From Chthonomonas calidirosea (GTDB lineage: Bacteria; Armatimonadota; Fimbriimonadia; Fimbriimonadales; Fimbriimonadaceae): 64,000 bases of DNA. The first letter of the stretch is position 1, and every line of letters starts with the position of its first letter. This document shows, piece by piece, positions 27,839 through 40,106 of the stretch. The DNA lies in NCBI GenBank assembly GCA_945882415.1, contig CAMCWC010000002.1, positions 248,001 through 312,000 on the forward strand. The letters are read 5' to 3'. A model generated the notes under the pieces. That model did no database searches, was not told the DNA's origin, and saw only the letters and a program-made list of their open reading frames with translations. The position numbers and the translations under genes were made by a program.

Positions 27839-28735
27839 TTACTTGATGTTGCCGTTCATGCCGGCCGGATAGAATCCGCCGCTGGTGGTGCCGCCGAGGT
27901 AGACGATCTTCAGCACTTCGGCCGTTGTTCGCGAGTACGGGATGGCGTTGCTGTCGGTTGGGACGAGGTTGGCGTTTCCGGAGACCACGATGCCTTGGTC
28001 CTTTTCGGATCCGGCGGCGGAGTCTCGGAGATCCGAGATTCGCTGAGCGTTTGTGATCGCCGCGCCACCGATGCTGAAGAGCACGGTTCGGACGATTCCC
28101 GCGTGGTACGCCTCGACGCCGAGAATTCCTGCAGCAGCTTCGAGGAAACCCTTATCGGAGATGAGTGGCGACGCGCCTTTGTAAGCGGTAACACCGACGT
28201 CCTCGAAGATGAAGGCTCCGAGCAGGAAGCTAACTTCATCGGCAAACGGGTTGAAGCTGGGTCCAATTCCGGCCGCAGCTGCGGCCGCATCGAAAGCGGT
28301 CGAAAGGTTGATGGCCGGTCGGGACACGGCGTTTGAACCTAGCGCGGAGCGGAGGAACCGCACGTGAGCGAGTTCGTCAGCGGCGATTTCTTGGGCGTAC
28401 TGTCGGAACGCGGGAGTGGCGAACGGGACAGCGCTTCCACCGGAGACTGCGCCTGGGGTACCGCCAATGTCGGCCACCGGGAGTCCGCTACCGTTCACCG
28501 CGCGCAGATAGTATTCCGCTTCGAGGTATTCGAGGTTTAGTGCAAAGTTCAGAACATCGGCGTCGAGTCCGGCGCCGCTGCCATTGTTGTCGTCGTTTCC
28601 GCCGCAACCGGCGAGGAGGGAGGCTCCGGCAAAGGCCATGCTACCGGCGAACACGGTCTTGATGAGAGATCGACGTTCGAACCTCTTCTCCATCAGTTCT
28701 TCTTTCGCCAATTGAATCTCGTTTGTGATGCTCAT
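27839..28735 (-). CDS. Ferritin-like domain lipoprotein (Tat-type signal)
   Basis: Exported protein of about 298 residues with a ferritin-like four-helix bundle (Ferritin_2 type, as in plant desiccation-related PCC13-62). The leader carries RRSLIK, a hydrophobic stretch and LLAGC, so a twin-arginine-exported lipoprotein is predicted. Helices hold LNLEYLEAEYYL, EIAADELAHVRFL and EAYHAGIVRT, with carboxylate and His positions suited to metal binding. The ATG at 28735 is used; an ATG at 28693 with GAAAGAAG before it is an equal alternative and would place the twin Arg nearer the start. No enzymatic role is proven for the family. Confidence 0.82.
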   Translation of the reverse strand: MSITNEIQLAKEELMEKRFERRSLIKTVFAGSMAFAGASLLAGCGGNDDNNGSGAGLDADVLNFALNLEYLEAEYYLRAVNGSGLPVADIGGTPGAVSGGSAVPFATPAFRQYAQEIAADELAHVRFLRSALGSNAVSRPAINLSTAFDAAAAAAGIGPSFNPFADEVSFLLGAFIFEDVGVTAYKGASPLISDKGFLEAAAGILGVEAYHAGIVRTVLFSIGGAAITNAQRISDLRDSAAGSEKDQGIVVSGNANLVPTDSNAIPYSRTTAEVLKIVYLGGTTSGGFYPAGMNGNIK

Positions 28736-28781
28736 GTTTGTATCCGGCAGCAACGTCACCATCGAGTTGCTACGGGTTCAC

Positions 28782-28795
28782 TATACTCTCGTATA
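28782..28795. repeat. Short palindrome upstream of the ferritin-like gene
   Basis: TATAC-TCTC-GTATA, 46 bases before the ATG and overlapping a minus-strand TATAGT (28785-28780) that could be a -10 box. A regulator site is possible. Confidence 0.3.
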
Positions 28796-28883
28796 TTGCT
28801 ATTCAGATAACAAATTTTACGAAATCATCAAACGACAAAGCAAATTACGGATAGTAGATTAACCAACCTTCGGAAACAAGAAC

Positions 28884-28916
28884 GGCCCAGGCGCTTCTCT
28901 CCGAAGCACCTGGGCC
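28884..28916 (-). terminator. Terminator of the PEP-CTERM gene
   Basis: GGCCCAGGCGCTTC and GAAGCACCTGGGCC pair over 14 positions with one C-A mismatch and a five-base loop. On the minus strand it is followed by the T-rich GTTCTTGTTT, and it lies 20 bases after the stop of the PEP-CTERM gene. Confidence 0.8.
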
Positions 28917-28936
28917 ATTCCTAAGTATCCGTTGGT

Positions 28937-29605
28937 TCAGCTCTTTCGGCGTCGGCGGAGAACGGCGACGAGTCCGCCGCCCAGCATCAGCATGGTCGCT
29001 GGCTCTGGAACCGGGGCCTGGGTCACGCTAACGTTGTCGAGGCCCCAGCTTTCGTCGTGGATGCCCTGAAGGTTTGCACCCGAGAAGGTTAGGGTGAGCG
29101 TGGTGCCGGTGCTGAGGAAGGTGAAGCCTGCGTTCTTTGGTCCACCGAATTTGTAAACCGAGTTCCCGTAGAAGTTGAAGCCCAGGGTGTCGATTTCGTC
29201 AGCATCCGTCCCGGCGGCAAAGCTGCCCGAGCCGCTTGCCGAGTACGACTGGTTGTAACCCGACTGTTCGACGTTGCTGAAGGTCTCGTCAAGGAGCGTG
29301 TTACCGTTGGCACCGAACTTGAACCGGTCTGGACCGACGCCCGAGTTGCTACCGTCCCAAGAGTCGATGACGAAGAGGTCGAAGTTGACGGTGGTCAGCG
29401 AACCTGCAGTCAGACCGTTCAGGGTTAGGGTGATGGTGTTGTTATCGAACCGGCCCAGGAACTTTCGGTTAGCATCAGCCGGGGTCGCGGTGACAAGAGA
29501 CGAGGACCACTCTGACCCAACCATGCCTTGAAAATCTTCGAAGTAAGTAAAAGCATGTGCCGAAAGTGGCAACGCAAGAATGCCAAAAGCAATAAATTTC
29601 TTCAT
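28937..29605 (-). CDS. PEP-CTERM sorting-domain protein
   Basis: Exported protein of 222 residues with a signal peptide (MKKFIAFGILALPLSAHA) and a C-terminal VPEPATMLMLGGGLVAVLRRRRKS-type tail made of PEP motif, hydrophobic helix and Arg cluster. The middle is a beta-sandwich (NTITLTLNGLTAGSLTTVNF, DDESWGLDNVSV-like end) similar to lectin-like or choice-of-anchor domains. It should be processed by an exosortase at the surface; no exosortase gene is in the window. TAGACT lies six bases before the ATG. Confidence 0.9.
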   Translation of the reverse strand: MKKFIAFGILALPLSAHAFTYFEDFQGMVGSEWSSSLVTATPADANRKFLGRFDNNTITLTLNGLTAGSLTTVNFDLFVIDSWDGSNSGVGPDRFKFGANGNTLLDETFSNVEQSGYNQSYSASGSGSFAAGTDADEIDTLGFNFYGNSVYKFGGPKNAGFTFLSTGTTLTLTFSGANLQGIHDESWGLDNVSVTQAPVPEPATMLMLGGGLVAVLRRRRKS

Positions 29606-29621: not shown

Positions 29622-29657
29622 GTCACGCAAAAGCGGTAGGCACCGCTTTTGCGTGAC
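29622..29657. terminator. Long perfect hairpin after the SBP-OmpA operon
   Basis: GTCACGCAAAAGCGGT and its exact complement form a 16-bp stem with loop AGGC, 28 bases after the last gene of the minus-strand operon and just upstream of the PEP-CTERM promoter box. No T tract follows, so either a stable terminator or an RNA-end protecting element. Confidence 0.65.
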
Positions 29658-29685: not shown

Positions 29686-30381
29686 CTACGAAGGAGCATT
29701 TGCGCTAGCGCCGGTATCGAGGGTGAAGAATTCGAGCACCTCATCCAGGCGGTTGGACTCCGCGTCGCACTGGCCCACCGCGGCCGAGAGTAGGCTCTTC
29801 GTTCGCTCAATCTCTTCTCGGTGAACCGCAATCTGGGTTTCTAGCTCCAGGATTTTCATTTCCAGACTGCCGACGTAGGTGCTGGATTGGTGGGTGAGGA
29901 GATCTTCGTAGGCGGAAAGGGCGGCAACCTTTCGCCCGGCATCGGCCAAAACTCCCGCGGTATCGACGCCCATGGCCTTGCCCATAGCGGCAATGGTGGC
30001 GTTGACGGTTGCTCGCCGAACGTCGATCGGGAGCGAGACTGGGAGCGAGTGAATGACATCCAGGGCTTGCTCCGCCGAAAATGCCACCGGGGTCAGACCG
30101 GCGCGCTTGTAGACGAGCTGATAGTCGACTTTGCCATCTGGCGCAGTGGGCGATGGAGCGGGCTCTTCGGCAATTTTAATCTGATCCAAGTTGGGTCCGG
30201 GGGTTTCTTGAATGATTTGCTCGACCGATTTTGTCGCCACGGGCGCGGGGCGAGGTGCGGCAGGCAGGTCCTCCAAATCGGTCTTGAATTTAAGTGGCTC
30301 GGCGGTCAGATCCGCGACGGGCTCTGGCGGCAGTTCGACGACTAACGAAGCCGCTTTTCTAAGGATGTTTTTAATGCTCAT
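29686..30381 (-). CDS. Unknown coiled-coil protein, last gene of the SBP-OmpA operon
   Basis: A 231-residue cytosolic protein that I cannot name. A Pro/Ala-rich, acidic first half leads to a conserved-looking core, VDYQLVYKRAGLTPVAF followed by helices with LPIDVRRATVNATIAAMGKAMGVD, and then a coiled coil (about 165-215) ending in NRLDEVLEFFTLD. There is no membrane segment or catalytic motif. It starts 10 bases after the preceding gene of the operon. It may act as an adaptor to the membrane coiled-coil protein or ABC ATPase; this is inference from position. Confidence 0.6.
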   Translation of the reverse strand: MSIKNILRKAASLVVELPPEPVADLTAEPLKFKTDLEDLPAAPRPAPVATKSVEQIIQETPGPNLDQIKIAEEPAPSPTAPDGKVDYQLVYKRAGLTPVAFSAEQALDVIHSLPVSLPIDVRRATVNATIAAMGKAMGVDTAGVLADAGRKVAALSAYEDLLTHQSSTYVGSLEMKILELETQIAVHREEIERTKSLLSAAVGQCDAESNRLDEVLEFFTLDTGASANAPS

Positions 30382-30391
30382 ATCCGTCTCT

Positions 30392-31357
30392 CTAACTCAA
30401 ATTTGCCACAACTTCGGTCATCGGCGTAATCTCGTCAATCGCTTCGGTGAGCGAGGTTGCCTGAATGATTACGTCGTCAATGTCGCTTAGAACCTGCTCA
30501 GGCGATCGCGCGCGGATTTCGTCGTTGATCAGCCCAAACGTGTCGGCCATGAGTCGCATTTGTAGGCCAAGGTTCGACATGATCTGGCTGACCCGGGTGA
30601 TGAACTCCTTTCGTCGGTTCAAGATTTGCTGCCGCTTCGACATCAGGTTTTGGTTGGCGACGACCGTCTCTGACTGAATCGATTCATCCAGGGTTCGAAG
30701 CTCGTATTCGTAATAGCTTGAAATCGTGAATGCGACTTCTTCCACCCACTCAGGGGAGGGATTGAGGGCCGCGCTATCGGGGGTCTCGTCGTCGTTTCGC
30801 TCCCCTTTTCTCGTTTTTGGAGGAGCAGAACCCATCATCATCGGCGGGGTCACCGACCTTCGGTCGGCGGCCGGAATCTTTTCGTAAACCTCGGCATAGA
30901 CCGACATAAGGTAGCTCGCGAACTGGGCTTCCTTTTGCGCGAACTGCAAGTACTTCTCCATGAGGAAGTCAAGTTTGCGCATGGCTTCGCGGAACCAGCC
31001 TTCCTCGCCGCGCGATTGACCTTCTATCTGGCTACGCACTTGCTCTAAGCGCGAGAATTCCTGCCGAATTTCCTTTCTAACGATCGGGAAAGTTTGGGCC
31101 TTGAGGGCCTCGCGGCGCTCCACGACTTCGCCATCAAACCGAGATTGAAGGCGCTTTTCGTACCAGGATGTATCGGGCACAAACAGCAAGTAAACAGCTT
31201 CGGCAACGAGCCCAACCAGGAGGGGAATGGGGTTGAGGGTTGCGGCAGAGGCGGCGACAAAGCCTGCAAGTGCAACCAGGTTTGGCCCCTCTTTAAAGGC
31301 CTCGCCGAGTCGGTATTTCAGGCTCTTGTAAATCGGTAACGAAGGGTCAAATTTCAC
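30392..31357 (-). CDS. Unknown membrane-attached coiled-coil protein
   Basis: A 321-residue protein, unrecognised. After a short polar start, a hydrophobic hairpin (about 28-62, LVALAGFVAASAATLNPIPL and following) anchors it to the inner membrane, and the rest is helical and charged with long heptad stretches: an arm before about 165, a low-complexity linker (170-200) and a second arm to the end. It sits between the ABC ATPase gene and another coiled-coil gene in the same operon, 41 bases after the ATPase stop. A scaffold or signalling link between transporter and cytoplasm is a guess. Confidence 0.6.
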   Translation of the reverse strand: MKFDPSLPIYKSLKYRLGEAFKEGPNLVALAGFVAASAATLNPIPLLVGLVAEAVYLLFVPDTSWYEKRLQSRFDGEVVERREALKAQTFPIVRKEIRQEFSRLEQVRSQIEGQSRGEEGWFREAMRKLDFLMEKYLQFAQKEAQFASYLMSVYAEVYEKIPAADRRSVTPPMMMGSAPPKTRKGERNDDETPDSAALNPSPEWVEEVAFTISSYYEYELRTLDESIQSETVVANQNLMSKRQQILNRRKEFITRVSQIMSNLGLQMRLMADTFGLINDEIRARSPEQVLSDIDDVIIQATSLTEAIDEITPMTEVVANLS

Positions 31358-31398
31358 GACGGTTAGCTTCGAATTACATTATGGCCCGGGAACCTGAT

Positions 31399-32235
31399 CT
31401 ACAAATGTTCGAATAGATCTTTCACCTCATTGACCGTGGCATGAAATTCTGGGGTCCGAGAAATGTTCTCGTGCCAGGCCAAGCCGCGGGCGATGAGATC
31501 GATGGATTTTTGAATCTTTGCGCCGGGAATGAACGCGCCAGCCTCGTCCCGGTCTCGTCCGAGAAGGATGAGCGTGTCGCAGACTTCGATGGCGGAAGCG
31601 ATGTCGTGGGTGACGATGATGAACGTTTTGTGCTCGTCCGTCTGAGCGACTTCTTTGATGAACTTGCACATCCTGCCTAACGCCAGCGGGTCGAGGCCAC
31701 TGAAGGGCTCGTCCATCAGCATGAGTTCGTTGCTGCACATGAACTGCTGAGCGATGGCGGCGCGTTGGCGCTGACCGCCCGAAAGTTGCACCGGGTACTT
31801 ATCGCCGTGATCGGCTAAGCCGAAGTTTTCGAGCAGTTGCTTCGCCCTGCCTTCCGCTTCGGCAGCCGACATTCCGGCTTGCTTTCCGGCGACCACGAGG
31901 TTGCCGAGGATTTTGCGGTGGGTGAGGAGCGGGTAGTTCTGCGCGACAACGCCGACGGTTCCCGGCTTGACCGGCTCGCCGGGCTCACCGACCAAAACCG
32001 TTCCGGAGTCAGGTGGGTTCAGGCCGGCGAGGATTCGGAAGAGTTGCGTCTTGCCCATGCCGCTGGGGCCGAGCAGCCCTACAACCTGGCCCTGCTCAAT
32101 TCCCGGACGAACAATGTTTCGAACCTCAAAGTGGACGTCGCGAAGGATCTTCTTACCCCCAAGGGTCAGATGGATACCCTCGACCAAAAGGAGCCGCTCC
32201 TTAATGTCGTAGGCGATCGCAGGTCGGGACATCAT
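31399..32235 (-). CDS. ABC transporter ATP-binding protein (NitT/TauT type)
   Basis: ATPase of 278 residues with complete motifs: Walker A GPSGMGKTQ, Q-loop VVAQNYPLL, signature LSGGQRQRAAIAQQ, Walker B LMLMDEPFSGLDP and switch His in IVTHD. It resembles nitrate/taurine-type import ATPases but has an extra C-terminal part (about 235-278). Its ATG immediately follows the permease stop. It would power the import or sensing machine whose receptor is the SBP-OmpA protein. Confidence 0.92.
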   Translation of the reverse strand: MMSRPAIAYDIKERLLLVEGIHLTLGGKKILRDVHFEVRNIVRPGIEQGQVVGLLGPSGMGKTQLFRILAGLNPPDSGTVLVGEPGEPVKPGTVGVVAQNYPLLTHRKILGNLVVAGKQAGMSAAEAEGRAKQLLENFGLADHGDKYPVQLSGGQRQRAAIAQQFMCSNELMLMDEPFSGLDPLALGRMCKFIKEVAQTDEHKTFIIVTHDIASAIEVCDTLILLGRDRDEAGAFIPGAKIQKSIDLIARGLAWHENISRTPEFHATVNEVKDLFEHL

Positions 32236-33072
32236 TTACTTGCGCTCCAAGGTCAGCACTGCATATGGGCAGACCGCACGACGGACGAAACCGATGATCA
32301 CGTCTTGGAAAAGACCAACGATGAGAATGATGATTTGAATCCCAAAGACCTCACTCATCTTAAAGAACTTCTGCTGATTAAGAAGGAGCGCGCCGATACC
32401 GCCTTCGCCGCGATAAATCCCTTCAACTAACGTGAGCATCATCCAGCCGATCGCGGCGTTTTGACGCAATACTTCAAAGGCTTTGTCCGCCGTTCCAAGA
32501 ACGACGACCTCCCAAACGACGCGCCATTCGCTCATGCGAAGCGTTCGCGCGTAGTCAAAGTCCGCTTTCGGGATCTCGGAAACCACCGCCGCCATAGAGG
32601 TGACGAAGAAGACGGTCATCGCAAACACGAGGAGCGAGAGCTTGAGGGCATGGCCGCCACCGACGATGAGGGTGAAGACCAACGTGAACCCCGCCATGCT
32701 CAGGAACCGCCCTTTGCCAAGCGCATTCACAAGAGGCCGGAAGAACGGCAACACGGTGAGATAGGCCAGACCAATCGAAATGACGGCGGAGATCGCCACC
32801 GCTTCGAGGTTAAGGGATACGCTCGTGATCAGCTCTTGCCCGAGCCCTTGCTTAAACCACAGCTCCCGAATCGAGTTCAGGACTTCAAGTGGCTTCGGCA
32901 GGACGGCGAAGGCGGAGAAGGTCCAGAGCAGCAGGAAGATCGCCACCTGAACGGCGATGATGATGTTCATCGCCGTTCGGCTGAGAATTTTATTCGGCGA
33001 GAATGCTTGAAGCAATCCCGCCGCTTGTTTGGTGACCTTCGGCGTTTCCGCGAGCCCGGTCGGTGCGTTCAT
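32236..33072 (-). CDS. ABC transporter permease (BPD_transp_1, NitT/TauT type)
   Basis: Inner-membrane permease of 278 residues with about six helices. The EAA-like loop is around DFDYARTLRMSEWRVVWEVVVLG, and the pattern GEGGIGALLLNQQKFF appears in the last third. A long cytoplasmic N-terminus precedes the first helix (about 36). Start overlaps the stop of the SBP-OmpA gene in ATGA (33069-33072). Only one permease gene is present, so a homodimer is expected. Confidence 0.9.
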   Translation of the reverse strand: MNAPTGLAETPKVTKQAAGLLQAFSPNKILSRTAMNIIIAVQVAIFLLLWTFSAFAVLPKPLEVLNSIRELWFKQGLGQELITSVSLNLEAVAISAVISIGLAYLTVLPFFRPLVNALGKGRFLSMAGFTLVFTLIVGGGHALKLSLLVFAMTVFFVTSMAAVVSEIPKADFDYARTLRMSEWRVVWEVVVLGTADKAFEVLRQNAAIGWMMLTLVEGIYRGEGGIGALLLNQQKFFKMSEVFGIQIIILIVGLFQDVIIGFVRRAVCPYAVLTLERK

Positions 33073-34901
33073 CGGAGGGCTTGAACCTTGATCTCTACGC
33101 GGCGGTTCTTGGCTCGGCCTTCATTGGTCGTGTTTGGCACGATCGGCTGAGTAGAGCCGTGGGCGCGAACCGGGACGCGTCCGGTCGGGAAGAGTCTTGG
33201 GGCTCGCTTATTCAGCCATCGCTGAACCGCAAACGCACGCGCTTCGGATAGCGCCATGTTCGAAGCCGGGTTTCCGACGTTGTCGGTGTGTCCGTGGACT
33301 TCAATGCTGGTCGTCGTACTAACCGCAAGCTCTTGAACGAGCTTTTCCAGAACCGGCTTAGCCGAAGGCTTGAGCACGGCTCGTCCGGTTTCGAATTCGA
33401 TGTTCCAAGCCCGCGAGCTGATTTGCCGCTTGCTGGTCACGGCGCCAGGCTTTGGCGTGGTGACGGCCATTTCGCTGCTTCTCAGGGTCTGCTCGCTGAA
33501 GTTCTGCTCCTGAGCGACGGCCTTGATGTACCGGGTGTCCAAGATGTCCGACGCAGCCGGGTAGCTCGGCATGAGTTCTGGATACTGGGCTTTCACTATT
33601 TCGCCGAACGTGGTGTAAACGCTAGAGAAGATGTTTGCCGATCCGCTGACCAGTCCAAAGAGCAGCATGTTGTCCGCGATGTTGTTGACCGACGATCCGC
33701 CAAGCTCGACCATCATGCCGGTCTTGTCCTTCTCGTAGGTTCCTTTGTAGTAGCGCTCCCAGTAGCTGGCGTCCTGCTCGCCGTAGTTCACGGCGCTGAT
33801 TTCGGCAGCCTTTCGAAGGGCAGCGGAGCTACTTCGGACGGCTTCTCCGCCGACCAAAGCGCCATCGAGCATCTTTACAACAAGATCCTCGTTCTCTTTC
33901 ATCCACTTGTCAATACTGATGACCACGCAGGGCATCTGCGCGTTGTATTCCTTGGTGGAGACGATGGAGACGAGGCCACCTTTCTTGTCGGCAACGTTAA
34001 CGTCGCCGGGGGTCCAGGTTACAACCGCGTCGACCTTGATCGTCTTGGTCTCGCCCGTTCGCTTTCCGTTTCGAACGACGGGTCGCTTTTCGGTGTAGCC
34101 AGAGATGTACTTTTCGCCGGCATCCAGGTAATCGTTCGCGGCCACCCAGTTCAGAGCATCAGGGTCATAAGTCTTTTCGTCCGGGTTGTTCTTGAGGCCG
34201 TTGTCACCAAGCCACTTCATGGCGATGTTCCAGTCGCCGTCTCGCAGGTAGCCGGAAACTACGCCGCCTTTACTGGCAGCGGGGTTGGACGACCAACTCT
34301 TAGGGCCCATGAACTTATCTTCTCCACGCGAGAAGCCGATGGCGCCGACGACTTTCGCCTTGTACTCGGGTCCGAGTTTGCCAAGAGTGTCGTTGAGGCC
34401 AGCGAGGAAGGCGGCACCGCCGTCACCCATGATGGTGACGAAGTGGGTTCCGCGCTCGGGCTGCTTGTTCCCCCGGCTAAGTTCCGTTGCGAAGTCGACA
34501 AGCGCTTCTTGCATCTTCGAAACGTCGTCTTGGCGAGTGAAGTCGATCGCCACGCCGCGCTCGGCCATGAGCGATCCGGTGGTCGTCGCCTTGCCACCGT
34601 TAGCAAAGAAGATGCCCATGTGCGCGTTCCAGGCCCAGTGCATGAAGCGGATGCGGGGTGCGTCGCTGGTGAACTTGTTGGTTCCGGGCAGGGCCAGATT
34701 CTTCACCGAGACCGGAGTTGGCTGGTTGTTGATCTGGGGCAGGTCGGCCTTAATGGGGACCACGGATTCTCGAACGGGAGCCGATGGCACGAGATCGCCA
34801 AGACCTCCGCCGGTGTAGACCTTGTAGGCACCAGCGGCAACTCCAACGACCAAGATTAGAGCAATTACTTTGCCCAAGGGTTTTACTTTAACTTCACTCA
34901 T
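33069..34901 (-). CDS. Substrate-binding protein fused to OmpA peptidoglycan-binding domain
   Basis: A 610-residue protein anchored by one N-terminal membrane helix (about 10-28). Residues 80-440 form a periplasmic binding-protein fold of the PstS/NitT class (RIRFMHWAWNAHMGIFFANGG; WTPGDVNVADKKGGL; VVISIDKWMKENEDLVVKML). Residues 495-610 are an OmpA_C domain with IEFETGRAVLKPSAKP, HGHTDNVG and GRAKNRRVEI, including the Asp and Arg that bind diaminopimelate. The receptor is thus tied both to the inner membrane and to the cell wall. Ligand unknown. The ATG at 34901 is chosen because the upstream frame has no similarity; it heads a five-gene operon. Confidence 0.88.
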   Translation of the reverse strand: MSEVKVKPLGKVIALILVVGVAAGAYKVYTGGGLGDLVPSAPVRESVVPIKADLPQINNQPTPVSVKNLALPGTNKFTSDAPRIRFMHWAWNAHMGIFFANGGKATTTGSLMAERGVAIDFTRQDDVSKMQEALVDFATELSRGNKQPERGTHFVTIMGDGGAAFLAGLNDTLGKLGPEYKAKVVGAIGFSRGEDKFMGPKSWSSNPAASKGGVVSGYLRDGDWNIAMKWLGDNGLKNNPDEKTYDPDALNWVAANDYLDAGEKYISGYTEKRPVVRNGKRTGETKTIKVDAVVTWTPGDVNVADKKGGLVSIVSTKEYNAQMPCVVISIDKWMKENEDLVVKMLDGALVGGEAVRSSSAALRKAAEISAVNYGEQDASYWERYYKGTYEKDKTGMMVELGGSSVNNIADNMLLFGLVSGSANIFSSVYTTFGEIVKAQYPELMPSYPAASDILDTRYIKAVAQEQNFSEQTLRSSEMAVTTPKPGAVTSKRQISSRAWNIEFETGRAVLKPSAKPVLEKLVQELAVSTTTSIEVHGHTDNVGNPASNMALSEARAFAVQRWLNKRAPRLFPTGRVPVRAHGSTQPIVPNTTNEGRAKNRRVEIKVQALR

Positions 34902-35871: not shown

Positions 35872-37977
35872 ATGAAACTTGATATTCGAATCGTTGGAAC
35901 CTTTGCGGTGGCTCTTGGCCTGGCGGTCGCGGCTGATGCGCAACTGGACTTCTACGATACGAACGTCGTCTTCACGGGGAACCATGAGCGGCCGCTTTCG
36001 GGGTACGGAAGCGGTGCGTACATCTCACCGGATGGCAAGTTTGTCGGGTTCATGTCCTCGCGACATGGCCTGCGGTACGGCGATCTCCCACTAACCAATG
36101 ATGTTTTTGTGCGCTCATTAACCGGCGGTCAGATTTACGGGATTAGCAAGTTCGCGGGCAAATACTTCCCGGTCCGAATTAATGAGCAGGCACCGGACGT
36201 ACGGGTAATGCCCTCCAATGTGGCCGTGGTCACCTTCTTTTTGGCGGAGTATCCGGTCGCCGGATTGAGCCCCGACCGATACCAGATTTATGCCCATAAC
36301 CGGGAAACCGGGGAGACAAGCTGGGCATCGGTTCCTCCAGCCGGGACCGCAATCTTCGGTTTTTGCAACCCGATCGCCATAGACAACCTCGGCACTCGCC
36401 TGATCTTCACCGCAAGCGAATCGCAGGGTCGGTACGGTATCTATGTTCGCGACTTCACAACCCGAACAACCGTAAGGGTGCACGAGACCGAACGACATGA
36501 AGTTCCGGTATTAGGAGCCAGCGCCAACGGGCTGAACATTCTTTATCGCGACAACTCGGGACTGTCGCTATTCCAAAACGGAGCGACGAAGTCGATTTTG
36601 CCCGCCAGTGGATCGGTGCACAAACCGCACTGGGTGAGCGATGACGGCAAGACCGCCATTTTGGAATCGACCGCCGCCCTCGATCCTCTCGATACCGGTG
36701 GCAACGACCTTTATGTGCTGAACCTTGAAACCAAAATCGGCGTACGGTTGCCGCGCCCGGACACGGAAGTCAGCTTTTGGGCGATTCATGTGAGCAGAAA
36801 CGGGCGCTTCATTGCCGCGGCACCCTACCCAAGTTCCTTCGTGAAGGTTCTGGACCGGACAACGAACAAGTGGACCGACTTTACGCCCTACAACCTTGGC
36901 CAAGAGCATCCCACGTCGATTGCCGTTGATGATTCGGGGAACAACGTGGTAGCCAGCACGTACCCAGGCAACCTGATTTGGCTGAGGCGATCCTCGCGGG
37001 TGCTCCGGAATCTGGACGACATCGGCCAGCCGAACCTGCCGGACGACCTGAATCAGTTTGCGGTCACGCCAGACGAACGGTTTGCGTTTGTGCAAAGCCG
37101 TGACATTTTCCGCGATGGAGTTTTCCGATCAGTTCGGCGCGACTTGACTACGGGCGCGGATGTAGTGGTGCCAAACACGCTGGTGCCCATCGCGGTGAGC
37201 AACAACGGCCGATACGTGCTTGGTCGGGCGGGTTCCCTTGGTGCTCAGCACGTAGACCTGAAACGAGGAGCGATTACACAAATCCGGGGAACTGCAGTTG
37301 GGATGGATGGATCCGGAAACTTGGTGGTGTTCCAAGCAAACGACCAAGTGTGGGTTCGGAATATCTCGCGCGGCGAAGAGTATCTGCTTAGCTACACCAC
37401 AGCGGGCTTGGGAGGAAACGGGCCATCTGGCTCGGCAGTAGTTTCCAACAATGGACGTTACGTCTACTTCACATCGAGTGCCCGGGACTTGGCGGCAGGA
37501 CAACAATTACCGCCGTTTCCGGAAGATTACGTTGACAAGTGTCTGTACCGATGGGATCCGCAAACGAGGCAGACCGAACTTGTATTGGTGCCCCGCTGGA
37601 ATGGAATATGGTTCTGGGGCGTTGAAGGACCACAAGTATCGGCAGACGGGCGATACGTTGCATTTTCTTTTGTTTATTCCGGTCCCGACACGCTCTTCTT
37701 CCCAACCATTTTGGATACCCAGTCCTATCGTTGGAAGCAAGTATTTGGCGGCAGAGACACCCGAATCGTGTCTATTTCACCTGACGGTCAACATGCGCTG
37801 GTAGGAGACGAATATTACAATCCGCTGAAAATCTTCCGTTTTGGTGACGGCAAGATTTCGGAGTTGTTAAACGACTTAACGGATTGGCCTTTGACAGCCG
37901 GTCAAATGACCAACAACCGAAGGGTCTGGCTCGCGCGCTTTGGCGCGATTATTCGGGGCCGTTACGAGTTTCGTTAG
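35872..37977 (+). CDS. Secreted TolB/WD40-like beta-propeller protein, paralogue 1
   Basis: Exported protein of 701 residues with a signal peptide ending at ADAQ. It is built of repeated propeller strands such as ISPDGKFVGFMSS, WVSDDGKTAILES and VSADGRYVAFSF, giving two propellers. No catalytic domain or sorting tail is visible. It is the first of three tandem relatives; paralogue 2 is similar over the whole length, including the start QLDFYDTNVVFTG and the end NRRVWxxxxGAIxRGRYEFR. Role unknown; surface binding or sensing is possible. Confidence 0.82.
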   Translation: MKLDIRIVGTFAVALGLAVAADAQLDFYDTNVVFTGNHERPLSGYGSGAYISPDGKFVGFMSSRHGLRYGDLPLTNDVFVRSLTGGQIYGISKFAGKYFPVRINEQAPDVRVMPSNVAVVTFFLAEYPVAGLSPDRYQIYAHNRETGETSWASVPPAGTAIFGFCNPIAIDNLGTRLIFTASESQGRYGIYVRDFTTRTTVRVHETERHEVPVLGASANGLNILYRDNSGLSLFQNGATKSILPASGSVHKPHWVSDDGKTAILESTAALDPLDTGGNDLYVLNLETKIGVRLPRPDTEVSFWAIHVSRNGRFIAAAPYPSSFVKVLDRTTNKWTDFTPYNLGQEHPTSIAVDDSGNNVVASTYPGNLIWLRRSSRVLRNLDDIGQPNLPDDLNQFAVTPDERFAFVQSRDIFRDGVFRSVRRDLTTGADVVVPNTLVPIAVSNNGRYVLGRAGSLGAQHVDLKRGAITQIRGTAVGMDGSGNLVVFQANDQVWVRNISRGEEYLLSYTTAGLGGNGPSGSAVVSNNGRYVYFTSSARDLAAGQQLPPFPEDYVDKCLYRWDPQTRQTELVLVPRWNGIWFWGVEGPQVSADGRYVAFSFVYSGPDTLFFPTILDTQSYRWKQVFGGRDTRIVSISPDGQHALVGDEYYNPLKIFRFGDGKISELLNDLTDWPLTAGQMTNNRRVWLARFGAIIRGRYEFR

Positions 37978-38003
37978 TTTGGAGTTTGGTGGGTGATAGC
38001 AAT

Positions 38004-40106
38004 ATGAAATTTGTCTGTTGGAAACTAGGGGTGCTTCTCGGGGCGCTGGGCGTTTTTGCCGTTGCTGATGCGCAGCTGGACTTCTACGATACGAACGTCG
38101 TCTTCACCGGTTCGCTTTCGCGGCCATTGGTGGGGCAAGGGAGTGGGGCGTTTATTTCACCGGATGGCAAGTTTGCCGGATTCACGACGACTCGGCATGG
38201 CTTGAAATTTGGAGATATTCCGCAGACGACGGATGTTTTTCTTCGGTCGTTGGGCGGTGGTCAAACCTACGGTTTGAACAAGTTTGCGGGCAAGTACTTC
38301 TCGGTTGAATCGGAGTACCAGCACCTCGCGGTCATGCCCTCGAATCAGGGGCTGGTGAACTTCTTTGTCGTCGAAAACCCGGTGGCGGGACTTAGCACGG
38401 CTCGCACGCAGATTTACGTTCACAACCGGGAGACTGGGGAAACTTCGGTTGCTTCGGTTCCGCCAGCCGGCACCGCGAGTCTCGGTTATTGCGATCCCGT
38501 TGCCATTGACAACCTGGGAACGAGACTGATTTTTACCGGGGCCAAGCCCCAGGATCAGTACGGCATTTACGTTCGTGACTTTGCGACCGGGGCAACCACC
38601 CTTGTTCACGAACCGATTCGCGGCCATCGACCGGTGCTTGGGGTTAGCGCCAACGGGCTCAACATTCTGTATCGAGACGGATCGGGGCTTTCGCTCTTTA
38701 AGAATGGGGTCAAGACACCGATCTTCTCGGCGAGTGCGTCGGTTTACACCCCTCATTGGGTGAGCGACGACGGCAAGACCGCCATTTTGGAATCGACGGC
38801 GGCGCTTGATCCGCTAGACGTGGGCGGGAATGATTTGTACGTTCTCAACCTTGAGACGAAAGTTGGAGTGCGACTGCCACGCCCCACCAACACGGAAGTC
38901 AGCCTGCGGGCCGTGCACGTGAGCCGGAATGGGAGATTCATTGCGGTGGCTCCGTACAGCACCGTGAAGACCCTAGTCTTTGACCGCACGACCAACAAAT
39001 GGACGGACTTCACGCCGTACAACATCGGTCAAGAGTTTCCAGAATCCATCGCCATTGATAACTCGGGGAACAACGTGGTGATGAGCACGTACTACCAAAA
39101 CCCGATGTGGCTTAGCCGATCTACGCGGGTGGCACGGTACTTGGACGATGTTGGTCAGCCGAACCTGCCCGCTGACTTGCAGAATTTCGCAGTGACCCCA
39201 GACGAGCGGTTCGCCTTCGTGCGGAGCCGGGACATTTTCCGCGATGGCGTTTACCGGTCGGTGCGACGAGACATGACCACGGGTGGGGATGTGGTGGTGC
39301 CGAACAACCCGATGCCGATTGCCGTGAGCAATAACGGGCGGTACGTTCTCGGTCGGCCGGATTCCCTCGCAGTTCATCAACACGTGGACCTGAAGCGAGG
39401 GGTGATCACGAATCTGGTCGGCAATCCGGTCGGCATGGATGGAACCGGAAACCTGGTGGTGTTCCTCGCGAACAACCAAGTTTGGGTACGCAACATCTCG
39501 CGCGGCGAAGAGTATCTCCTTAGCTACACCGCAACAGGCTTAGGCGGAAATCGTCCTTCGGGCTCGGCGGTGATCTCGAACGACGGACGCTACGTGTACT
39601 TCACTTCAAGCGCCCGAGACTTGGCGGCGGGTCGGGAGTTACCTTACGAGCCCGAATTCGACGAGGTTGACAAGTCTCTGTACCGCTGGGACTCGCAAAC
39701 GCGCACAACCCAGCTTGTTCTGGTGCCTCGCGGAGAGGATTTGACCTTTGATGGGGTCGAGGGTCCGCAGGTTTCGGCAGATGGCCGGTTCGTTGCGTTT
39801 ACTTATCTGGTGTCTAGTGCGGACAACTTCTACTTCCCGATGATTTTGGACACGCAAACCGGCTCGTGGCAGAAGGTCCCCGGCGGGACGACACGAATTC
39901 TTTCGATCTCACCCGATGGGCAATATGCGTTGATTACCGACGAATTTCGGCTCCGAGTGCTGCGACTGGGTGACGGAAGAGAAGGAATCTTGCTTACGGA
40001 TGAGTACTACGGAACCACGTTTTCCCAAGGACAAATGACGAACAATCGCCGTGTTTGGTTTTCGTTCGCCGGAGCAATTGTGAGAGGTCGTTATGAATTT
40101 CGTTAA
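38004..40106 (+). CDS. Secreted TolB/WD40-like beta-propeller protein, paralogue 2
   Basis: A 700-residue exported protein, a close copy of the gene before it, with the same layout and long identical stretches (YVLNLETK, GKTAILESTAALDPLD). The ATG at 38004 begins the signal peptide and lies 26 bases after the stop of paralogue 1; an open frame continues upstream into that gene and is rejected. Its last 14 bases overlap the start of the third gene. A tandem duplication is clear; function is unknown. Confidence 0.82.
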   Translation: MKFVCWKLGVLLGALGVFAVADAQLDFYDTNVVFTGSLSRPLVGQGSGAFISPDGKFAGFTTTRHGLKFGDIPQTTDVFLRSLGGGQTYGLNKFAGKYFSVESEYQHLAVMPSNQGLVNFFVVENPVAGLSTARTQIYVHNRETGETSVASVPPAGTASLGYCDPVAIDNLGTRLIFTGAKPQDQYGIYVRDFATGATTLVHEPIRGHRPVLGVSANGLNILYRDGSGLSLFKNGVKTPIFSASASVYTPHWVSDDGKTAILESTAALDPLDVGGNDLYVLNLETKVGVRLPRPTNTEVSLRAVHVSRNGRFIAVAPYSTVKTLVFDRTTNKWTDFTPYNIGQEFPESIAIDNSGNNVVMSTYYQNPMWLSRSTRVARYLDDVGQPNLPADLQNFAVTPDERFAFVRSRDIFRDGVYRSVRRDMTTGGDVVVPNNPMPIAVSNNGRYVLGRPDSLAVHQHVDLKRGVITNLVGNPVGMDGTGNLVVFLANNQVWVRNISRGEEYLLSYTATGLGGNRPSGSAVISNDGRYVYFTSSARDLAAGRELPYEPEFDEVDKSLYRWDSQTRTTQLVLVPRGEDLTFDGVEGPQVSADGRFVAFTYLVSSADNFYFPMILDTQTGSWQKVPGGTTRILSISPDGQYALITDEFRLRVLRLGDGREGILLTDEYYGTTFSQGQMTNNRRVWFSFAGAIVRGRYEFR

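What the first reader, a model, noticed from the sequence alone, without database searches (positions are those of the whole stretch)
29686..34901. Five-gene ABC cassette with a cell-wall-tethered receptor and two unknown coiled-coil proteins
The receptor is fused to an OmpA peptidoglycan-binding domain and also has an inner-membrane helix, so it spans from membrane to wall. It is coupled to a NitT-like permease and ATPase, then to a membrane hairpin coiled-coil protein and a soluble coiled-coil protein with no known role. A normal importer needs a mobile receptor; this one is fixed, which suggests a wall- or envelope-sensing machine or localised uptake rather than plain nutrient import.
Basis: partly seen in the sequence, partly recalled or inferred. 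Interest (0 to 1): 0.8.

Follow-up and report, generated by a model that had tools for sequence, protein, structure and literature searches.

The report
Wall-tethered importer cassette shared with megaphages
A five-gene bacterial operon builds an ABC importer whose receptor is pinned between inner membrane and cell wall, and the same five-gene arrangement is carried, in almost fixed order, by dozens of giant bacteriophages, which points to an unstudied envelope machine used by both cells and huge viruses.

Summary
In detail: a tight minus-strand operon (34901-29686) encodes a receptor (inner-membrane helix, NitT/TauT-type binding domain, OmpA peptidoglycan-binding domain), a NitT-type permease, an ATPase and two helical proteins without Pfam matches. 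The peptidoglycan-contact Asp and Arg are invariant in 54/54 receptor relatives.

The main result is unexpected. Close relatives are rare and patchy in cellular genomes (Armatimonadota, Bacteroidota) but common in huge phages: 73 of 83 viral loci hold all five genes on one strand, almost always in the order g5-g4-g1-g2-g3. They include Lak megaphage and 735-kb and 462-kb phages; 23 of 38 records tested carry a terminase. In phages and Bacteroidota gene 4 is PspA-like with a membrane hairpin; the window's gene 4 is an unrelated membrane coiled-coil protein in the same place.

Best explanation: an importer with a wall-anchored receptor, held in a membrane patch organised by the coiled-coil pair. 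Architecture and association are shown; transport, ligand and scaffolding are inferred. TelA is not part of it. A 2024 PspA survey mentions the bacterial operon type in passing; I found no description of the phage version in the library searched.

The parts
33069..34901 (-). g1: receptor, N-terminal transmembrane helix (aa 8-31), NitT/TauT-type substrate-binding domain (aa 78-470), OmpA-like peptidoglycan-binding domain (aa 494-608)
   Evidence: PF00691 69.3 bits; AF2 pLDDT 89.7; TauA 6ssy Z 28.0 rmsd 2.9 over 290 aa, TagL 5m38 Z 17.2 rmsd 1.4 over 113 aa; D540 and R555 invariant in 54/54
32236..33072 (-). g2: NitT-like ABC permease
   Evidence: PF00528 27.2 bits, cut-off 26.4; overlaps g1 by 4 bp; dN/dS 0.02
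31399..32235 (-). g3: ABC ATPase with Walker A, signature and Walker B motifs
   Evidence: PF00005 90.3 bits; motifs kept in 88-90 of 90 relatives
30392..31357 (-). g4: helical coiled-coil protein with predicted N-terminal membrane hairpin (Armatimonadota type, not detectably PspA)
   Evidence: no Pfam match; AF2 all-helical, pLDDT 72; in 23 of 151 phylum genomes including all 15 with the permease
29686..30381 (-). g5: soluble protein with conserved N-terminal motif, proline-rich linker, small helical domain and C-terminal coiled coil; homologous to the phage g5
   Evidence: hhalign of bacterial against phage g5 alignment 96.5 %, E 7.6e-10 over 127 columns
29622..29657 (.). perfect 16-bp inverted repeat with 4-nt loop just downstream of g5; possible transcript end, no T run

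Best explanation
The locus encodes a type I (NitT/TauT-like) ABC importer whose binding protein is fixed twice, by an N-terminal inner-membrane helix and by a C-terminal OmpA domain that grips peptidoglycan. The receptor is thus held in the narrow space above its permease (g2) and delivers a small ligand to it; g3 powers uptake. The two helical proteins act at the cytoplasmic face of the membrane: g4 (here an Armatimonadota-type membrane coiled coil, elsewhere a PspA/IM30-like protein with a membrane hairpin) and g5 form a scaffold or remodelling layer that clusters, anchors or regulates the transporter. The cassette moves between bacteria and huge phages; a phage would use it to supply or stabilise the infected cell. 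Shown: gene content and order, fold of g1, conserved catalytic and peptidoglycan-contact residues, constrained cleft, co-occurrence, presence in huge phages. Inferred: import direction, ligand, scaffold role, benefit to the phage.
For: Fold and order. ATPase motifs kept in 88-90 of 90 relatives. In the binding domain 31 of 49 positions conserved in at least 90% of relatives lie at the C-terminal ends of beta strands, where such receptors hold ligand (149 of 393 positions lie there in all, p 1e-4), so a cleft is under constraint in phages and bacteria alike. Peptidoglycan-contact Asp/Arg invariant 54/54. All five genes in 73/83 viral loci, 8 of 10 exceptions cut by contig ends; 11/14 Armatimonadota loci. 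Phage g4 is PspA-like (PF04012 in 6 of 36 members, best 9.9e-6). g5 is homologous across phages and bacteria. An outer-membrane beta-barrel-like gene sits between g1 and g2 in about a dozen phage loci, as expected of a transport route through the envelope. Bacterial copies lie on chromosomes: in Flavobacterium next to ATP synthase genes.
Against: No ligand or transport is shown. The window's g4 is not detectably related to PspA (hhalign 3.5 %), so the scaffold role rests on position. The g5/PspA-like pair also occurs without ABC genes in Bacteroidota, so it has a life of its own. Lak and the 735-kb phage have a clearly different binding-domain subtype (21-23 % identity), so the ligand may differ or matter little.
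Confidence: 0.55

Rival explanations
1. Envelope sensor: the wall-anchored binding domain reports ligand or wall distance to the ABC unit, and ATP hydrolysis signals to g4/g5 (in the manner of FtsEX or BceAB) rather than importing.
For: Double anchoring in membrane and wall; OmpA domain most like T6SS TagL and MotB-type anchors; coiled-coil partners.
Against: A constrained ligand cleft and a complete NitT-type importer set; no kinase, regulator or wall hydrolase conserved beside it.
Confidence: 0.2
2. Membrane repair or remodelling machine: the PspA-like/g5 layer is the core, and the ABC unit only localises or fuels it, or moves a lipid or wall precursor.
For: Phage g4 is PspA-like; a true PspA and an AAA+ ATPase lie beside the cassette in L042 and L044; PMC11237479 proposes a link between remodelling and transport for such operons; g5/PspA-like pairs exist alone.
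Against: In the window and most Armatimonadota no PspA is in the operon; the receptor fold is that of small-solute importers.
Confidence: 0.17
3. Ordinary nutrient importer with an incidental OmpA fusion; g4 and g5 are unrelated neighbours.
For: NitT-type folds and motifs.
Against: Five-gene set kept from Armatimonadota to Bacteroidota and dozens of huge phages; g4 in all 15 phylum genomes with the permease.
Confidence: 0.05

Closest known systems
PspA/Snf7-AAA+ operons with ABC ATPase, permease and a PBPB-OmpA protein (mSystems 2024, PMC11237479, example OGG56892.1)
   Same: Same ABC trio with a binding-protein/OmpA fusion beside PspA-like genes; L042 and L044 also carry PspA and AAA+.
   Different: Mentioned in passing for bacteria; the window has no PspA or AAA+ in the operon and a different g4; g5 and huge phages do not appear in the passages read.
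NitT/TauT-type ABC importers (TauABC, SsuABC, CmpABCD, NrtABCD)
   Same: Fold of the binding domain (TauA Z 28.0), permease family, ATPase motifs.
   Different: Receptor fused to an inner-membrane helix and an OmpA domain; extra helical partner genes.
Receptor-fused type I importers GlnPQ and OpuA (PMC8025302, PMC11065425)
   Same: Receptor is fixed rather than free.
   Different: There the receptor is joined to the transporter and not bound to the wall.
MotB/PomB, TagL/TssL and ZorB wall anchors
   Same: Inner-membrane helix plus OmpA-type peptidoglycan grip.
   Different: No MotA/ExbB-type partner; a solute-binding domain lies between helix and grip.

Membership tests
NitT/TauT-type I ABC importer | binding protein with the TauA/SsuA/NrtA type fold | tested here: met
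   TauA 6ssy_B Z 28.0, rmsd 2.9, 290 of 297 residues; NMT1 Pfam match in 6 of 54 relatives
NitT/TauT-type I ABC importer | BPD_transp_1 permease | tested here: met
   27.2 bits against cut-off 26.4
NitT/TauT-type I ABC importer | active ATPase motifs | tested here: met
   Walker A 89/90, signature 90/90, Walker B 88/90
NitT/TauT-type I ABC importer | uptake of a solute | not testable with these tools
   needs binding and transport assays
OmpA-like peptidoglycan-binding domain | fold and diaminopimelate-contact Asp and Arg | tested here: met
   TagL 5m38 Z 17.2; alignment through the TDN and LS..R motifs; D540 and R555 54/54
PspA/IM30 (window g4) | match to PF04012 or profile similarity to the PspA-like g4 of phages | tested here: not met
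   no PF04012 in 13 members; hhalign 3.5 %
PspA/IM30 (phage and Bacteroidota g4) | match to PF04012 | tested here: inconclusive
   6 of 36 members match, best E 9.9e-6, the rest do not; hhalign to PspA 64.6 %, E 6e-5
PspA-AAA+ operons of PMC11237479 | PspA/Snf7 and AAA+ genes in the same operon | tested here: not met
   window operon has neither; the genome's only PspA is on another contig; met in relatives L042 and L044
TelA anion-resistance clusters | TelA (PF05816) gene near by | tested here: not met
   no match in the window genome; of 36 genomes and records only Lak-B5 passes the cut-off, far from its cassette
Zorya/MotAB-type motors | MotA/ExbB-type channel partner | tested here: not met
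   none of the five proteins matches such a family; ZorB similarity is the OmpA domain only

The most novel reading that the evidence does not exclude
Huge phages of several clades carry a complete, wall-anchored ABC transport machine with its own PspA-like membrane scaffold as a conserved part of their way of life (long infections of large cells that need envelope upkeep or import), and bacteria such as Armatimonadota exchanged it with them repeatedly.
Probability: 0.4. Interest if true: 0.88.

Novelty: new variant of a known kind. Interest (0 to 1): 0.72.

Why it matters
Phages carry scattered transport genes, but a five-gene, order-conserved, receptor-to-scaffold ABC machine kept by Lak megaphages, a 735-kb phage and dozens of other large viral contigs is not described in the papers I could search. 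It gives a concrete, testable candidate for how huge phages manage the envelope of the infected cell, and a family of wall-tethered receptors in which to test whether fixing the receptor changes transport. The bacterial copies, on chromosomes of culturable Flavobacterium and Hymenobacter, make it accessible to genetics.

Tried and rejected
TelA partnership: rejected. PspA identity of the window's g4: no sequence support; a fold search of its model gave nothing with E under 0.09, mostly designed bundles and transporters, so its fold remains open. Prophage origin of the window locus: GC is flat across the region, neighbours look cellular and synteny is kept in the nearest genome. Defence system: PADLOC matches are the OmpA and generic ATPase domains only. 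The plasmid search found only OmpA-domain matches. The BFVD structure library listed no full-length relative. PHROGs hold the Lak-type receptor (phrog_25518) and permease (phrog_6743) as unknown function. The tail-sheath profile hit too few records to help (4 of 38). My automatic choice of genetic code 15 for some GC-rich loci was wrong; the count was redone from stop to stop without it, code 15 kept for Lak only. L132 (478 kb, the only viral contig with the Armatimonadota-type g4) gave no terminase with three profiles, so its viral status is open. The tree shows at least 5-6 changes between viral and bacterial labels, but its root is not known, so the direction of transfer is undecided.

Full report
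Observation. g1 (610 aa) has one transmembrane helix, a binding domain and an OmpA domain; g2 is a NitT-like permease; g3 an ABC ATPase; g4 and g5 have no significant Pfam or NCBIfam match. The genome has only one OmpA-family domain, the one in g1. dN/dS against the nearest same-genus genome is 0.05, 0.02, 0.03 and 0.02 for g1 to g4; dS is saturated for g5.

Receptor anatomy. An AlphaFold model from 54 relatives has mean pLDDT 89.7. The binding domain matches TauA (6ssy, Z 28.0, rmsd 2.9, 290 residues), CmpA, NrtA, SsuA and thiamin-precursor receptors; the C-terminal domain matches the peptidoglycan-binding domain of TagL (Z 17.2) and OmpA structures solved with diaminopimelate. The Asp and Arg of the TDN and LS..R motifs, known from work on Acinetobacter OmpA (own knowledge) as the diaminopimelate contacts, are invariant in all 54. 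In the binding domain, positions conserved in at least 90 % of relatives concentrate at the C-terminal ends of strands (31 of 49, against 149 of 393 positions in all, p 1e-4), which is where such receptors bind ligand. This is indirect: it shows that a cleft is under constraint, not what it binds.

Bacterial distribution. In a sample of 151 genomes of the window's phylum (Armatimonadota, judging by named relative L053 in the same clade), a close permease occurs in 15; all 15 have g4, and 13 have a strong g5. Eight more genomes have a g4 relative without the permease, several of them incomplete. Gene order varies: g1-g2-g3-g4-g5 or g4-g5-g1-g2-g3. Within the window's genus 4 of 6 sampled genomes have the cassette. 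In Flavobacterium pectinovorum the cassette follows the ATP synthase genes, so it is chromosomal. A more distant subtype with the same genes occurs in Saprospirales and in MAG contigs labelled Spirochaetia and Nanoarchaeota. In G019 (L042), G045 (L044) and G004, Armatimonadota of one family, a PspA gene stands beside g4-g5, and in the first two also an AAA+ ATPase.

Huge phages. GenBank phages with the cassette include LR756500 (462 kb), LR756501/LR756503 (735 kb) and Lak megaphages. Counting from stop to stop with profile HMMs, 73 of 83 viral loci have all five genes on one strand within 8 kb of g1; eight of the ten exceptions lie near a contig end. Where complete, the order is g5-g4-g1-g2-g3, save L132. 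A terminase large subunit was found in 23 of 38 records by three profiles; the others may be fragments or have divergent terminases. Neighbours include phage-type genes: homing endonucleases, DNA ligase, NAMPT, dUTPase, clamp loader (read from sequence). About a dozen loci have a small beta-barrel-like outer-membrane protein gene between g1 and g2 (judged by signal peptide and C-terminal pattern only).

Gene 4 is replaced. The phage and Bacteroidota g4 has a membrane hairpin followed by a PspA-like coiled coil: PF04012 matches in 6 of 36 members, best 9.9e-6, and profile comparison with a PspA gives 64.6 %. The window's g4 shows no similarity to it (3.5 %), and its moderate-confidence helical model has no useful PDB match. 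g5, in contrast, is homologous on both sides (96.5 %, E 7.6e-10, over a region that includes the part before the coiled coil). So the place of g4 is filled by two different membrane coiled-coil proteins, which argues that a membrane coiled coil in that place is what matters. In Bacteroidota, g5 and the PspA-like gene also occur without ABC genes (8 of 13 inspected loci).

Phylogeny. A tree of 113 receptors puts the Armatimonadota sequences, with viral contig L132, in one clade among viral sequences; starred branches force at least 5 to 6 changes between viral and bacterial labels. Repeated exchange is supported; direction is not.

Function. The simplest reading that uses all parts is an importer with a doubly anchored receptor and a submembrane scaffold. 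Shown: gene set, fold of g1, catalytic and anchor residues, constrained cleft, co-occurrence. Inferred: uptake, ligand, scaffold, benefit for phages. Sensor and remodelling readings remain open. Tethering by itself is no argument against import, since GlnPQ and OpuA work with receptors fixed to the transporter (PMC8025302, PMC11065425).

Prior work. [quoted passage not shown] A term search of the main texts of the Lak (PMC6784885) and huge-phage (PMC7162821) papers finds no mention of such a cassette; a 2025 preprint on Jug phages notes a pspA-like gene beside terD (PMC12363816). Supplements and subscription journals were not searchable, so a prior mention elsewhere is possible.

Verdict. Observation confirmed; interpretation partly supported; a new variant of a known but unstudied operon type, with an unexpected and strong huge-phage distribution.

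Noticed in passing
whole genome G000: Only one OmpA-family domain (PF00691) in the whole 99 % complete genome, the one in g1; so no Pal by this test.
   Followed up: partly
L041:8479-9792, L042:10795-11988, L044:3847-5040: A second membrane-anchored solute-binding-like protein without OmpA domain, with an N-terminal membrane segment like that of g1, stands beside the cassette in three Armatimonadota loci.
   Followed up: no
L257-L263: Pairs of g5 and PspA-like membrane gene without ABC genes in Bacteroidota, in recurring neighbourhoods.
   Followed up: partly
L178-L185, L187, L210 between g1 and g2: Small outer-membrane beta-barrel-like protein gene inside the phage cassette; in L178, L179 and L181 an ATP-dependent DNA ligase gene as well.
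   Followed up: no
L193:12347-12796 and relatives in 20 loci: A small multi-pass membrane protein, sometimes in several copies, follows g3 in many phage loci.
   Followed up: no
MK250024.1 about 270-276 kb; IMG/VR record of L143: Terminase large subunit lies within several kb of the cassette in Lak-B5 and in L143, but far away in other phages.
   Followed up: no
window 35872-40106: Two consecutive plus-strand paralogous genes of about 700 aa with repeated propeller-like sequence, just upstream of the cassette on the other strand.
   Followed up: no
window 27839-29605: Ferritin-like (PF13668) and PEP-CTERM genes downstream of the cassette.
   Followed up: no
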